From: Brucella rhizosphaerae
GTDB taxonomy: Bacteria > Pseudomonadota > Alphaproteobacteria > Rhizobiales > Rhizobiaceae
Direction of reading: 5' to 3'
Assembly: GCF_002252475.1 (NCBI RefSeq)
Contig: NZ_NNRK01000024.1
Span: 1-64,000, forward strand
DNA length: 64,000 nucleotides
Position 1 is the first letter of the stretch, and each line of letters begins with the position of its first letter. Positions 19,670-62,499 of the stretch are shown here, piece by piece. Made by a program: the position numbers and the translations under genes. Below the pieces are notes generated by a model. It was given only the letters and a program-made list of their open reading frames with translations, was not told where the DNA came from and made no database searches.

Positions 19670-20569
19670 ATGAATATTTTCAAAGGCCTGTCCGCGTTCC
19701 CGCTCACGCCAATCGATGCAGCTGGCAATCTCATCGAGGATGCTCTCAACACGTTTCTCACACGCATTCAAGCAGCCGGTGCGGATTCGATCGGCCTGTT
19801 GGGAAGCACCGGCGGTTATGCCTTTCTCACGCGTGAACAGCGTCGGCATGCCGTGGAGAGTGCCGTGCAATGCATAGGTGGGAAAATACCGCTGATCGTT
19901 GGCGTCGGCGCGTTACGCACTGATGAGGCACAAGCCCTTGCCCGCGATGCCGCAGACGCCGGTGCGGATGCGCTGTTGCTTGCACCCGTTTCCTATACGC
20001 CACTAACTCAGGAAGAAGGCTTTCAGCACTTCAAGGCAGTTGCTGACGCGACTGATCTGCCGCTGTGCGTCTATAATAATCCCGGTACCACCAAATTTGT
20101 TTTCAGCCATGAACTGATCGCGCGATTGGCACATGTCGAGAATATCAAGGCGATCAAAATGCCATTGCCCGTCGATGGCGATTATGCGGACGAGCTTTCA
20201 AAACTTCGTTCTGAAACACCTGAAAACTTCTCAATTGGCTATAGCGGTGACTGGGGTGCAAAAGATGCGCTTCTGGCTGGCTGTGATGCCTTTTATAGCG
20301 TCATTGCAGGCCTCCTTCCTGTCGAGGCACTGGCTCTGACGCGCGCAGCACAAGCAGGCAACAAGGTTGAAGCAGGGCGCATCAACACAGCTTTTGAGCC
20401 GCTGTGGGACCTGTTCAGAACCTATGGCAGTTTTCGCGTGATGTATGTAATTGCTGACCTTCTTGGCCTTGCAAAGATCGAGCCTCCGCGCCCCATTCTG
20501 CCATTGGCAGCAGAGGCACGCAGCCAGGTTGAAGCTGCTCTGAACCAATTGGGCAGCCTCTCTCGCTAA
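19670..20569 (+). CDS. Dihydrodipicolinate synthase/N-acetylneuraminate lyase family aldolase
   Basis: A class I (Schiff-base) aldolase of the DapA/NanA superfamily, 299 residues. The N-terminal block SAFPLTPID and GLLGSTGGYAFLT correspond to the substrate-binding GTTGE-like loop, here GSTGG. VYNNPGTT carries the catalytic tyrosine, and IKAIKMP holds the Schiff-base lysine. The altered loop and divergence suggest it is not the housekeeping DapA but a keto-acid aldolase of unknown substrate. It probably shares a transcript with the LysE exporter. A strong terminator follows. Confidence 0.85.
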   Translation: MNIFKGLSAFPLTPIDAAGNLIEDALNTFLTRIQAAGADSIGLLGSTGGYAFLTREQRRHAVESAVQCIGGKIPLIVGVGALRTDEAQALARDAADAGADALLLAPVSYTPLTQEEGFQHFKAVADATDLPLCVYNNPGTTKFVFSHELIARLAHVENIKAIKMPLPVDGDYADELSKLRSETPENFSIGYSGDWGAKDALLAGCDAFYSVIAGLLPVEALALTRAAQAGNKVEAGRINTAFEPLWDLFRTYGSFRVMYVIADLLGLAKIEPPRPILPLAAEARSQVEAALNQLGSLSR

Positions 20570-20618: not shown

Positions 20619-21041
20619 TCAGGCTACACTCAGCCGAACATCGATATTGCCGCGTGTTGCGTGCGAATAAGGGCAGACGATGTGCGCGGCGTTGACCAGC
20701 TCTTCAGCCTTGGCCTTGTCGACACCCGGCAGGGCAACCTCAAGAGCAACATCAAGGCCGAAGCCTGTGCCATCGTCACGTGGACCAATACCAACAGTTG
20801 CGGTCACAGTGGTGTCAGCTGAAATCGAAACCTTCTCTTTGGATGCCACGAATTTCAGAGCGCCAAGAAAGCAAGCCGCATAACCAGAGGCAAAAAGCTG
20901 TTCAGGATTGGTGCCATCACCGCCCGAACCGCCCAGTTCCTTTGGCGTATCAAGAACGACGCTGAGGCGTCCGTCAGCGGTCTTGGCGCTACCGGTACGT
21001 CCGCCCGTTGCGGTAGACTGTGTGGTATAGAGAATGGACAT
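20619..21041 (-). CDS. ohr: Organic hydroperoxide resistance protein Ohr
   Basis: A thiol peroxidase of the Ohr/OsmC family, 140 residues, that reduces organic hydroperoxides. The two redox cysteines are Cys57 (YAACFLGA) and Cys123 (HIVCPYSHATR), both in the expected contexts. GGAG lies 7 bases before the ATG. It is divergent from ohrR across 150 bases, the classical arrangement in which OhrR represses ohr until oxidised. Confidence 0.96.
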   Translation of the reverse strand: MSILYTTQSTATGGRTGSAKTADGRLSVVLDTPKELGGSGGDGTNPEQLFASGYAACFLGALKFVASKEKVSISADTTVTATVGIGPRDDGTGFGLDVALEVALPGVDKAKAEELVNAAHIVCPYSHATRGNIDVRLSVA

Positions 21042-21080
21042 ATGACGTCTCCTGTTTGTGAACTTATCTCCGCATCTAAA

Positions 21081-21160
21081 ATTGCAAATATTTAAATTGT
21101 TCGCAATCTAATTTTGCAAAATATATTTTCACGATTATGTGACGCGCAATTCAATTGTGC
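21081..21160. promoter_or_regulatory. Candidate OhrR operators in the ohr-ohrR intergenic region
   Basis: Two dyads are visible. One is ATTGC...GCAAT at 21081-21107, with TTGCAAA repeated at 21082 and 21114. The other is a 17-bp near-perfect palindrome at 21144-21160, GCGCAATT-C-AATTGTGC. Known OhrR boxes are AT-rich CAATT/AATTG palindromes, so the second site is the better candidate; assignment is by inference. Confidence 0.6.
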
Positions 21161-21192
21161 ATATCGTATAGTCGGGATAAGGAAGGTGGATC

Positions 21193-21648
21193 ATGAACAA
21201 CGACCGCAAAGACTCCCACTTGCACCTGTCAGATATGGTCTGCTTCGCGATCTATTCGACCGCGAATGCTCTTACCCGTGCCTATCAGCCCATCCTGAGC
21301 AAGCTCGACCTCACCTATCCCCAATTTCTGGTGATGCTGGTTCTATGGGAAAAGGACGACCAGACGGTCTCGGAAATTGGCGGAAAGCTTAATCTTGATT
21401 CCGGCACCTTGACCCCGCTCCTCAAGCGCCTTGAAACTGCTGGCCGCATCAGACGCCGCCGTGACCCACAGGATGAGCGGCAGGTGCGTATCACATTGAC
21501 CGATGAGGGGCGAGCTTTGCGCGAAGCTGCGGAAAGTATCCCTGAGCAGATTTTCTGCGCACTCGGCCAGCCATTGGACGACCTGCAAGATATGCGTGCC
21601 CGATTGCTCGAAATTCGCGGCAATCTTACCGATAGTATCTCGCGTTAA
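21193..21648 (+). CDS. ohrR: MarR-family peroxide-sensing regulator OhrR
   Basis: A 151-residue winged-helix repressor of the MarR family. Cys17 in SDMVCFAIYS is at the position of the OhrR peroxide-sensing cysteine. The HTH/wing region reads through LDSGTLTPLLKRLE and RRRDPQDERQVRITLT. GGAAGGTGG is just upstream of the ATG. Its divergence from ohr supports the assignment. It is expected to repress ohr and itself, with release on oxidation of the cysteine by organic peroxides. Confidence 0.95.
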   Translation: MNNDRKDSHLHLSDMVCFAIYSTANALTRAYQPILSKLDLTYPQFLVMLVLWEKDDQTVSEIGGKLNLDSGTLTPLLKRLETAGRIRRRRDPQDERQVRITLTDEGRALREAAESIPEQIFCALGQPLDDLQDMRARLLEIRGNLTDSISR

Positions 21649-21700: not shown

Positions 21701-22735
21701 TTAAGCAGCCAGCGCCTTTGGCGTGATCAAGCCGCGAGCAACCAGAAGTTCTGCGATCTGGATCGTATTGAGAGCAGCGCCCTTGCGCAGATTGTCAGAA
21801 ACAATCCACATGGCGAGACCGTTTTCGACGGTGATATCTTCGCGGATACGGCTGATGTAAGTCGCATCTTCACCAGCCGATTCATAAGGCGTGATGTAAC
21901 CACCGTCTTCGTGCTTGTCGATGACCTGACAACCCGGCGCTTCGCGCAGGATTTCGCGGGCTTCTTCAGCACTGATCGGGTTTTCAAACTCGATATTGAC
22001 CGCCTCGGAATGTCCGATAAAGACCGGAACGCGTACAGCCGTCGCAGTAAGCTTGATCTTCGGATCAAGCATCTTCTTGGTTTCGGCCATCATCTTCCAC
22101 TCTTCTTTGGTGTAGCCGTCTTCCATAAACTCGTCGATATGCGGGATCACATTGAACGCAATGCGCTTTGTGAACTTCTGCGTCGTAATTGGATCGGCCA
22201 CGAAAACCGCACGCGACTGCTGGAACAATTCGTCCATGCCTTCCTTGCCAGCGCCCGAAACGGACTGGTAGGTCGAGACAACCACGCGCTTGATTTTGGC
22301 GGCATCATGCAAAGGCTTGAGCGCGACAACAAGCTGCGCTGTCGAGCAGTTCGGATTGGCAATGATGTTCTTCTTGCGGAAACCTTCAATCGCGTCAGGG
22401 TTCACTTCCGGAACGATAAGCGGCACATGGGAGTCATAACGCCATGCAGACGAATTATCGATGACAACGCAGCCCTGCGCACCAATCTTGGGTGACCATT
22501 CCTTGGAAATGTTGCCGCCCGCTGACATGAGGCAGATGTCGGTATCGGAGAAATCATACTGGTCGAGCGGCTTAACCTTCAGCGTCTTGTCGCCGTAAGA
22601 TACTTCCGTACCCTGGCTACGACGCGAAGCGAGAGCCACGACTTCATCAGCCGGAAAACCGCGTTCTTCGAGGATATTGAGCATTTCGCGACCGACATTT
22701 CCGGTGGCGCCGACGACTGCAATCTTAAAACCCAT
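21701..22735 (-). CDS. asd: Aspartate-semialdehyde dehydrogenase
   Basis: This enzyme makes L-aspartate semialdehyde from aspartyl phosphate with NADPH, the branch point to lysine/diaminopimelate, threonine, isoleucine and methionine. The 344-residue protein begins MGFKIAVVGATGNVGREML (nucleotide-binding GxTGxVG), and the catalytic Cys130 sits in ANPNCSTAQ. AGAAGG and GGAG precede the ATG. Upstream on the same strand, and with no gene between, lies a threonine-rich leader ORF and an intrinsic terminator, so expression is probably controlled by attenuation. It is separated from serA by serA's own terminator. Confidence 0.98.
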   Translation of the reverse strand: MGFKIAVVGATGNVGREMLNILEERGFPADEVVALASRRSQGTEVSYGDKTLKVKPLDQYDFSDTDICLMSAGGNISKEWSPKIGAQGCVVIDNSSAWRYDSHVPLIVPEVNPDAIEGFRKKNIIANPNCSTAQLVVALKPLHDAAKIKRVVVSTYQSVSGAGKEGMDELFQQSRAVFVADPITTQKFTKRIAFNVIPHIDEFMEDGYTKEEWKMMAETKKMLDPKIKLTATAVRVPVFIGHSEAVNIEFENPISAEEAREILREAPGCQVIDKHEDGGYITPYESAGEDATYISRIREDITVENGLAMWIVSDNLRKGAALNTIQIAELLVARGLITPKALAA

Positions 22736-22764
22736 TTACCTTCTCCTGTCCTCTCCGCTTCCAT

Positions 22765-22784
22765 AAAAACCCGCGACCAGCGGG
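22765..22784 (-). terminator. Putative attenuator terminator in the asd leader
   Basis: Read on the minus strand: CCCGC-TGGTC-GCGGG followed by TTTTT, located 30 bases upstream of the asd start codon and 50 bases past the leader-peptide stop. The upstream arm of the stem (CCCGC) can alternatively pair: CGGGTC at 22806-22801 is complementary (one G-U) to GGCCCG at 22786-22781, a candidate antiterminator. The stem is short (5 GC pairs), so strength needs calculation. Confidence 0.7.
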
Positions 22785-22833
22785 CCTTTTCCCTGGGCCG
22801 GACCCGGGGAGAGAGGGCGAGCAGGCCAAGGGG

Positions 22834-22962
22834 TCAGACCGTTTTGGTGGTCGTTTTAATGCAAGTGGCCGTGGTAGTTTTGGAAACGGACGCCATAGGG
22901 CTGCCAATGGCGATGAGGCCATTCAGTCCACACAGGCTATGTGATGCGCGAGAAGCGTTCAC
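22834..22962 (-). CDS. Threonine-rich leader peptide of asd
   Basis: A 42-codon ORF starting with GTG, preceded by GGAGA with a 7-base spacer. Its last 14 residues are TTTATCIKTTTKTV: eight threonines, with isoleucine, lysine and cysteine among them. The ORF ends 98 bases before asd and is followed by an intrinsic terminator. This is the layout of the thrL-type leaders that control threonine operons by ribosome stalling. Here the controlled gene would be asd, whose product feeds threonine and isoleucine synthesis. The N-terminal two-thirds (NASRASHSLCGLNG...) is not related to anything I know. A longer in-frame ORF from 23085 has no ribosome site and would cross the promoter-like sequence. 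Confidence 0.72.
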   Translation of the reverse strand: MNASRASHSLCGLNGLIAIGSPMASVSKTTTATCIKTTTKTV

Positions 22963-22987
22963 GGGATTGTCTCCTTTTCCGACTGCG

Positions 22988-23015
22988 CTTTTAAGCCTTC
23001 TGAAAAAAGAGTCAA
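22988..23015 (-). promoter_or_regulatory. Candidate promoter of the asd leader transcript
   Basis: On the minus strand TTGACT (23015-23010) is followed after 16 bases by TAAAAG (22993-22988). Transcription would begin about 20 bases before the leader-peptide GTG. It lies between the serA terminator and the leader ORF, which fits an independent asd transcript. Confidence 0.5.
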
Positions 23016-33724: not shown

Positions 33725-33799
33725 GCGGGTGTAGCTCAGGGGTAGAGCACAACCTTGCCAAGGTTGGGGTCGAGGGTTCGAATCCCTTCGCCCGCTCCA
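33725..33799 (+). tRNA. tRNA-Gly (anticodon GCC)
   Basis: A full cloverleaf can be drawn. The acceptor stem GCGGGTG pairs with CGCCCGC and is followed by T and an encoded CCA. The D arm is AGCTCAGGGGTAGAGC. The anticodon stem CAACC/GGTTG carries TTGCCAA with GCC at 33757-33759. The T arm has GGTTCGAATCC. Confidence 0.97.
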
Positions 33800-61888: not shown

Positions 61889-62195
61889 TTTTTCCTCACT
61901 GGGGATAGATTGTATCGGTTGCGTCTTACAAAGATGAAGACGCGAAAAAACGTTCACGCATTGCAAAATGCGCGCAATAAAGACTCGGAAGTTTGACAAA
62001 CACGGCTTACCTAAACGGCAAACCAGACACGTTAGCCCGTAAAGGGTGGACCGGAAATGTTAGGCCTCAAATCACTCGACATGTGTGTCACCCCGAAACT
62101 TTGGAGAGATATTCGGGGGCAGCAACAGACATGACAAACTCTGCCACACCCTATTGCGCGCCAACCGGACATCTCGCCCGTGGACGTTCATGTTC
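61889..62195 (-). other. nrdH leader between riboswitch and start codon
   Basis: About 300 bases without a supported ORF. A hairpin CCCCGAA/TTCGGGG (62118-62091) is the clearest structure; no T run follows. This stretch should contain the expression platform of the riboswitch, which I cannot identify by eye. Confidence 0.45.
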
Positions 62196-62340
62196 AAGGC
62201 ACGTCTCCTGGCTCGCGACTCATCGCTCTCTGTCCCTCTTACCGGAATTTACCAGTGACATATGGACTTAAAGCTTGCCGCTTACAGATGCGGGACAACT
62301 ACGATATTGCTCACATTCATCATGAATGAAACGCACCGTA
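62196..62340 (-). ncRNA. Cobalamin (B12) riboswitch upstream of nrdHIEF
   Basis: Read on the minus strand: GGTGC near the 5' end, CCCGCATCTGTAAGCGG (62295-62279, close to the CCGCAACTGTAA core), then TGTCACTGG, then the B12 box AGCCAGGAGACGTGCC at 62213-62198, one base off the AGCCAGGAGACCTGCC consensus. Order and spacing fit the aptamer. The only gene downstream on this strand is nrdH. In other bacteria, B12 riboswitches repress B12-independent isozymes such as MetE and NrdAB when cobalamin is available; the same logic fits class Ib NrdEF. Confidence 0.87.
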
Positions 62341-62499
62341 TTGCCATTTTCGCTTTTCGACCCTTACGAATCGCAAGGGCCTTGAACACAAGATATAGTA
62401 CTCGAAGTTAAAAAGTCGTCAATGGATAGACGGTTCAAAAAAATTAAATATGGGCGTTATTGAGGCTCGCCTGTGAATAGCAGGGATATCTCCGAACCT

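What the first reader, a model, noticed from the sequence alone, without database searches (positions are those of the whole stretch)
22763..23015. Threonine-rich leader peptide and intrinsic terminator in front of asd
Directly seen: a promoter-like TTGACT/TAAAAG, a Shine-Dalgarno GGAGA 7 bases before a GTG, a 42-codon ORF with 8 Thr in its last 14 residues (TTTATCIKTTTKTV), and a CCCGC-TGGTC-GCGGG-TTTTT terminator before asd. The terminator's first arm can also pair with CGGGTC at 22806-22801. This is the layout of amino-acid attenuation, known for gammaproteobacterial thr operons; I do not recall it described for asd in this order. It would tie the branch point for Thr, Ile, Met, Lys and diaminopimelate to Thr-tRNA charging. 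The full antiterminator scheme is not resolved.
Basis: partly seen in the sequence, partly recalled or inferred. Interest (0 to 1): 0.82.

Follow-up and report, generated by a model that had tools for sequence, protein, structure and literature searches.

The report
Threonine/lysine leader peptide controlling asd
A short threonine- and lysine-rich peptide gene in front of asd, kept in many relatives of Brucella and Rhizobium, is followed by RNA segments that can fold in two opposing ways, and so probably lets the cell sense threonine and lysine supply and tune the enzyme that feeds both pathways.

Summary
On the minus strand, TTGACT/TAAAAG, GGAG, a GTG and a 42-codon ORF ending SKTTTATCIKTTTKTV precede asd; the first four occur together in 18 of 18 genus sequences checked. 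A Thr/Lys-rich ORF precedes asd in 32/32 distinct genus loci, 79/80 named loci, 66/82 loci from other genera of the family, 29/59 from other families of the order and 4/29 from other orders; simulated sequences reach 0-0.5%. Lysine codons are conserved with threonine codons, also when ORFs are chosen by threonine alone. The intrinsic terminator is not general: 6 of 75 clusters, 16 of 34 genus loci. What covaries is two crossing pairings: X:B, with X after the leader stop, and A:C, with C at the asd ribosome-binding site (p 1.5e-8 and 8e-6, controls not significant). I infer control mainly of asd translation, with termination possible in this genome too; equilibrium folding does not settle it. 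S. meliloti SEP5 (PMC10117765) was already suggested as such a leader, conserved only in Sinorhizobium; this extends it widely.

The parts
22988..23015 (-). Promoter-like hexamers TTGACT (23015..23010) and TAAAAG (22993..22988), spacing 16
   Evidence: Read; conserved 18 of 18 in the genus with unconserved DNA upstream; not scored by the strict scan
22971..22974 (-). Shine-Dalgarno GGAG of the leader ORF
   Evidence: GGAG before the GTG in 18 of 18 genus sequences, though not in one alignment column
22834..22962 (-). Leader ORF, 42 codons, GTG start, ends SKTTTATCIKTTTKTV then TGA
   Evidence: GTG conserved 18 of 18; Thr/Lys tail conserved before asd
22837..22852 (-). P0: GACC..GGUC hairpin inside the control codons
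   Evidence: Third bases of two Thr codons covary: C-G 58, G-C 47, mismatched 6, in the 111 of 179 sequences with the GACn..nGTC frame
22824..22870 (-). P1: GGCCA in the leader (22870..22866) pairing with UGGCC after the stop (22828..22824); alternative partner of X when the leader is not translated
   Evidence: GGCCA in 120 of the 139 sequences that carry GGYY after the stop; its first G stays while the codon it ends varies (ACG, AAG, ATG, CCG). Pairing inferred.
22824..22833 (-). Segment X (CCCCUUGGCC), directly after the leader stop
   Evidence: X:B swap test p 1.5e-8, controls not significant
22810..22816 (-). Segment A (CCUCUCU), core of the sequestering strand
   Evidence: A:C swap test p 8.2e-6; pairs with C in the fold
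22791..22799 (-). Segment B (GGCCCAGGG), partner of X (8 pairs, one mismatch) or of the 3' part of A (hairpin P2)
   Evidence: X:B is part of the minimum-energy fold when the RNA ends after P3 and starts 13 nt before the leader stop (L001)
22765..22786 (-).
   Evidence: GCGGGTTT in 16 of 34 genus loci; terminator-like site in 6 of 75 clusters
22743..22756 (-). Segment C (GGAGAGG 22756..22750) and asd Shine-Dalgarno AGGAG (22747..22743)
   Evidence: A:C swap test
21701..22735 (-). asd, aspartate-semialdehyde dehydrogenase, 344 aa
   Evidence: NCBIfam TIGR01296 and NF011456 over cut-off

Best explanation
A ribosome-mediated attenuator of asd that reads the charging of threonine and lysine tRNA and acts mainly on translation initiation of asd. 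Shown: the leader ORF, its conservation, and covariation of X:B and A:C. Inferred: a ribosome finishing the leader covers X, so A pairs with C next to or over the asd Shine-Dalgarno site and asd is held down. A ribosome stalled on Thr or Lys codons leaves X free; X pairs with B while the RNA is being made, which takes B from hairpin P2 and traps A in the loop, so C stays open and asd is translated. When the leader is not translated, P0/P1 tie up X and asd stays down. In this genome and about half of the genus, hairpin P3 has a U-run and may add termination.
For: Leader conserved beyond chance; TTGACT, TAAAAG, GGAG and GTG conserved. Among ORFs chosen by Thr alone, 2 or more Lys in 77 of 77 named, 62 of 66 family and 29 of 34 other-family tails, against 6-12% of simulated Thr-rich ORFs. 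X:B beats half its swapped partners in 60 of 75 clusters, p 1.5e-8; A:C in 55 of 75, p 8.2e-6; both hold at 49 and 35 clusters; an upstream leader segment does not (p 0.19 and 0.6) (X:B also p 6e-9). The best X:B helix begins within 6 nt of the leader stop in 43 of 75, where a ribosome at the stop would cover it. Covariation inside the Thr codons and constraint on GGCCA. Sequence model R1: at most one hit per genome among the candidates scored, 35 of 37 hits in front of asd (read). S. meliloti SEP5 is translated by Ribo-seq and Western blot (PMC10117765, passages).
Against: Equilibrium folding does not favour the open state: enforcing X:B costs a median 7.0 kcal/mol, under 3 in only 17 of 75; the unpaired probability of -20..-6 is 0.43 with X masked and 0.51 with X:B, higher in 49 of 75. 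So folding during transcription must be assumed. RNAalifold on the MAFFT alignment found only 10 pairs, -3.36 kcal/mol. A first, coarser A:C test was null, 38 of 75; X:B had p 0.003 and two leader-segment controls also reached p 0.009 and 0.03. The whole leader folds no better than shuffles (z -0.19). In 31 of 75 the best X:B helix starts 8 nt or more after the stop, and C ends 14-20 nt before ATG in 45 of 75, farther in 25, so SD overlap is not general. 30 of 59 loci from other families lack the leader. No expression data.
Confidence: 0.62

Rival explanations
1. Classical transcription attenuation: P3 is the terminator and asd is regulated by readthrough.
For: In this window P3 has a U5 tail and is scored as terminator-like. 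Outside the order, 2 of the 4 loci with a Thr/Lys leader carry a scored terminator after it (L287, L293).
Against: Terminator-like sites in only 6 of 75 clusters and 31 of 180 sequences; GCGGGTTT in 16 of 34 genus loci; the covarying segment C is near the asd SD, which a terminator does not need.
Confidence: 0.2
2. The nascent chain or the finished peptide acts (arrest peptide, or a functional leader peptide such as peTrpL), rather than tRNA charging.
For: In much of the family the end KTTTKTV is kept residue by residue, including the final Val. PMC10117765 recalls a functional leader peptide, peTrpL, in S. meliloti (passages).
Against: Across families composition (Thr and Lys) rather than order is kept, which fits codon sensing; the final GTC also fits the P0 pairing.
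Confidence: 0.1
3. Constitutive translational coupling: the leader ORF only keeps the 5' UTR open or delivers ribosomes to asd, without sensing amino acids.
For: Predicted folds bring the leader end near the asd SD.
Against: Does not explain Thr/Lys enrichment.
Confidence: 0.06

Closest known systems
S. meliloti SEP5 (PMC10117765; passages read)
   Same: sORF in the 5' UTR of a gene the paper calls aspartate dehydrogenase, six Thr and three Lys codons near its 3' end, translation shown by Ribo-seq and Western blot, suggested as a leader peptide. Probably the same element (inference; 34 of 180 tails here have exactly 6 Thr and 3 Lys).
   Different: The paper states conservation only in Sinorhizobium and, in the passages read, gives no RNA structure. 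Here it is found through most of the family sample, in other families of the order and in 4 of 29 loci outside it.
Gammaproteobacterial thr operon attenuator (recalled; Vitreschak 2004 is cited in papers read but was not read)
   Same: Leader peptide rich in the end-product amino acid, mutually exclusive RNA folds.
   Different: Recalled as Thr/Ile codons, an intrinsic terminator, and thrABC as target; here Thr/Lys, asd, and probably mainly the ribosome-binding site.
LEU element of actinobacterial leuA (PMC1262725; passages read)
   Same: Leader ORF with a run of control codons and pairing that involves the Shine-Dalgarno site of the biosynthetic gene.
   Different: There the leucine codons themselves pair with the SD; here separate segments X, A, B, C do.
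Caulobacter ilv leader (PMC4117421, passages read)
   Same: Leader ORF attenuation in the same class.
   Different: Described there with Ile and Val codons and a Rho-independent terminator.

Membership tests
Ribosome-mediated amino-acid leader-peptide attenuator (general kind) | Short ORF before a biosynthetic gene, enriched in codons for its end products | tested here: met
   translation itself only from PMC10117765 for S. meliloti
Ribosome-mediated amino-acid leader-peptide attenuator (general kind) | Two mutually exclusive RNA pairings, both under selection | tested here: met
   Crossing pairings X:B and A:C both covary, controls do not
Ribosome-mediated amino-acid leader-peptide attenuator (general kind) | Ribosome position switches the fold | tested here: inconclusive
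   X starts within 6 nt of the stop in 43 of 75, but equilibrium energies do not show the switch
Ribosome-mediated amino-acid leader-peptide attenuator (general kind) | Expression responds to charging of the cognate tRNA | not testable with these tools
   No expression data
Classical transcription attenuator (thr/trp type) | Intrinsic terminator between leader and gene, conserved | tested here: not met
   6 of 75 clusters, 31 of 180 sequences; 16 of 34 genus loci. Present in this window
Translational (SD-sequestering) attenuator | Conserved pairing that covers the ribosome-binding site of the regulated gene | tested here: inconclusive
   A:C covaries and in this window the SD is partly paired (L001), but C often ends upstream of the SD and predicted accessibility changes little
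Rfam families | Match at gathering score | tested here: not met
   Window and 10 relatives: none at this locus; sub-threshold matches were not looked at

The most novel reading that the evidence does not exclude
An old two-amino-acid (Thr plus Lys) tRNA-charging sensor sits in front of asd in Alphaproteobacteria and changed its output during evolution: transcription termination outside the order Hyphomicrobiales, translation initiation within it, with part of the genus of this window carrying both.
Probability: 0.4. Interest if true: 0.75.

Novelty: new variant of a known kind. Interest (0 to 1): 0.62.

Why it matters
asd makes the last common intermediate of lysine, diaminopimelate, threonine, methionine and isoleucine (established pathway knowledge). 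One leader that reads both Thr and Lys supply would put the shared step under both branches at once; no such leader was found at hom, lysC or thrC in this genome. It also offers a natural series for studying how an attenuator moves between termination and translation control.

Tried and rejected
Terminator as the general output: rejected after counting. Thr-only sensing: rejected because Lys stays enriched when ORFs are chosen by Thr alone; the earlier count of 67 of 75 tails with 2 or more Lys came from a set partly chosen by Lys. RNAalifold on the full MAFFT alignment: little signal, the alignment slips in the hairpins. Equilibrium folding of stalled and terminated states: equivocal; the regions bleed into each other, so its p-value is not used. 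The counts by group left out one- and two-digit locus numbers by a naming slip and were redone. The script stopped with an error after its swap tests; its codon count was redone. Second pattern hit in the genome (three mismatches, L303): no Thr/Lys-rich short ORF there.

Not examined or dropped: of the 34 genus genomes, 33 loci were scored (G012 not fetched); of 98 family genomes with a match, 82 loci were scored besides G000 and G029; G044 and G049 of the order were not fetched; L257 was dropped by an orientation check. The structural set of 180 sequences took only loci with a tail score of 4.5 or more and a stop within 175 nt of asd, duplicates removed, other orders left out. Three of the 62 sequences chosen (L047, L128, L163) were left out of alignment A1; 41 went into A2.

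Literature: ten searches, listings seen, found no description of asd attenuation other than the SEP5 remark; most subscription papers, among them Vitreschak 2004, are not in the library and were not read.

Full report
What is there. asd lies on the minus strand at 22735..21701 (TIGR01296 and NF011456 over cut-off). The window belongs to a Brucella/Ochrobactrum-type genome of 4.9 Mb; the nearest named asd loci are from Brucella pseudogrignonensis and B. pituitosa, 97% identical in protein.

Is it real. In 18 genus sequences chosen for an alignment, the two hexamers and the GTG are conserved column by column, DNA upstream of TTGACT is not, and TTGACT, TAAAAG, GGAG and GTG occur in that order in 18 of 18. 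I scored each upstream region for its best short ORF (Thr plus half a point per Lys in the last 14 residues). A score of 5 or more is reached in 32 of 32 distinct genus loci, 79 of 80 named loci, 66 of 82 loci from other genera of the family, 29 of 59 distinct loci from other families of the order, and 4 of 29 from other orders; first-order simulations of the same sequences reach it in 0-0.5%. The 29 are those given loci among 44 genomes with a match, own genome included, in a sample of 48. The groups overlap in species. Several misses in the family still end in short Thr/Lys peptides (for example L205, L197, L204); others have nothing similar. Within the window, 1 of 56 ATG-started ORFs of 200 aa or more, asd itself, has such an upstream ORF.

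What it senses. In 75 clusters (representatives of 180 distinct leader-to-asd spacers at 0.72 identity) the last 14 residues are 42% Thr and 19.5% Lys. Because that set was chosen by a score that counts Lys, I repeated the choice by Thr alone: among tails with 4 or more Thr, 77 of 77 named, 62 of 66 family and 29 of 34 other-family tails have 2 or more Lys, against 12%, 7% and 6% of simulated ORFs with 4 or more Thr. Both amino acids derive from the Asd product. In other families the peptide keeps this composition but not its order, which points to codons rather than to a particular peptide. Third bases vary (ACG 197, ACC 192, ACA 35, ACT 17).

How the RNA is built. After the leader stop come, in order, X, A, B, a variable hairpin P3, and C near the asd ribosome-binding site. 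X can pair with B; the 3' part of A with B (P2); A with C. X:B and A:C cross, and X:B and P2 share B, so they exclude each other in nested folds; a pseudoknot of X:B with A:C is not excluded. To test pairing without an alignment, I compared each sequence's own partner with partners swapped from other clusters. X:B: own better than half the swaps in 60 of 75, mean 2.3 kcal/mol, p 1.5e-8. A:C (best ungapped helix): 55 of 75, p 8.2e-6. Both stay significant at 49 and 35 clusters. Controls pairing an upstream leader segment with B or C give p 0.19 and 0.6. Earlier versions were less clear: A:C was null with the whole XA segment (38 of 75), and with ungapped helices X:B had p 0.003 while two leader-segment controls reached p 0.009 and 0.03, perhaps because that segment holds GGCCA. 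The tests account for relatedness only through clustering.

Inside the leader, the third bases of two Thr codons covary so that GACC..GGUC or GACG..CGUC forms: C-G 58, G-C 47, G-G 5, T-C 1 in the 111 of 179 sequences in that frame; this may be few evolutionary events. Of 139 sequences with GGYY after the stop, 120 have GGCCA in the leader, in 119 sites so placed that its first G ends codons for different amino acids (ACG 65, AAG 21, ATG 19, CCG 8 and others). That is what pairing of GGCCA with UGGCC after the stop would require.

Termination or translation. A terminator-like site between leader and asd is found in 6 of 75 clusters and 31 of 180 sequences; GCGGGTTT in 16 of 34 genus loci, T5 in 11 of 34. 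So P3 as a terminator is mainly a feature of part of this genus, this window included. Outside the order, L287 and L293 carry a scored terminator after a Thr/Lys leader; L275 and L290 do not by the scan, though GC-rich hairpins before T-containing tails are visible. The more general element is C, whose helix with A ends 14-20 nt before ATG in 45 of 75 clusters. In this window's own fold C and part of the SD AGGAG are paired (L001).

Against the model. At equilibrium X:B is not the preferred fold of the full leader: enforcing it costs a median of 7.0 kcal/mol, under 3 in 17 of 75, and 15.5 in this window (L001). Predicted unpaired probability of -20..-6 is 0.43 with X masked, 0.51 with X:B enforced, 0.38 stalled without constraint. 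In RNAs that end just after B or P3, X:B appears in the minimum-energy fold of many species, this one included, but not of all. The model therefore leans on folding during transcription. RNAalifold gave a weak consensus, and the leader is no more stable than shuffles. In 31 of 75 the best X:B helix starts 8 nt or more after the stop, partly because the window tested overlaps A.

Specificity. A sequence-only model of the leader end to B finds one hit in the own genome at E 10 (150 of 1236 candidates scored), and at most one per genome in 61 family genomes, 37 with a hit at E 0.001 (76 candidates scored per genome). Read against, 35 of the 37 lie just upstream of asd; G100 has no located asd and the weak G109 hit (5.7e-4) lies elsewhere. 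Many of these genomes supplied the model, so the point is the lack of second sites. Loci of hom, lysC and thrC in the own genome show no Thr/Lys-rich short ORF at a score of 5.5. Rfam has no match here at gathering score.

Prior work. PMC10117765 (passages read) reports S. [quoted passage not shown] I take this to be the same element; the S. meliloti sequence itself was not fetched. The breadth of conservation, the covariation and the proposed translational output go beyond those passages. Ten literature searches found nothing further on asd (listed in Tried and rejected).

Verdict. A new variant of a known kind: a Thr/Lys leader-peptide attenuator of asd, probably acting mostly on translation in this order. 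Interest 0.62.

Noticed in passing
window 62181-62399 (-): Cobalamin riboswitch, Rfam RF00174, 76.5 bits.
   Followed up: no
window 33725-33796 (+): tRNA gene by Rfam RF00005.
   Followed up: no
window 19670-20569 (+): DapA-like lyase near asd; below the dapA equivalog cut-off (131 of 206 bits), so perhaps not dapA itself.
   Followed up: partly
window 20619-21648: Divergent Ohr peroxiredoxin (TIGR03561 over cut-off) and OhrR-like regulator (169.8 bits, cut-off 200) downstream of asd.
   Followed up: partly
L221 and L261 (genome G191): One genome of the order has two asd copies (83% and 72% identical to this one); the first has a Thr/Lys leader, the second only a weak candidate.
   Followed up: partly
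L158, L198, L203, L207, L208, L209, L221, L238: A compact form of the element with the leader stop only about 70-85 nt before asd, most with a CCGCCCC-like/GGGGCGG-like pair after the stop.
   Followed up: partly
G109:C22:437369-437434: Weak model hit (E 5.7e-4) not in front of asd; may be chance or a second site.
   Followed up: no
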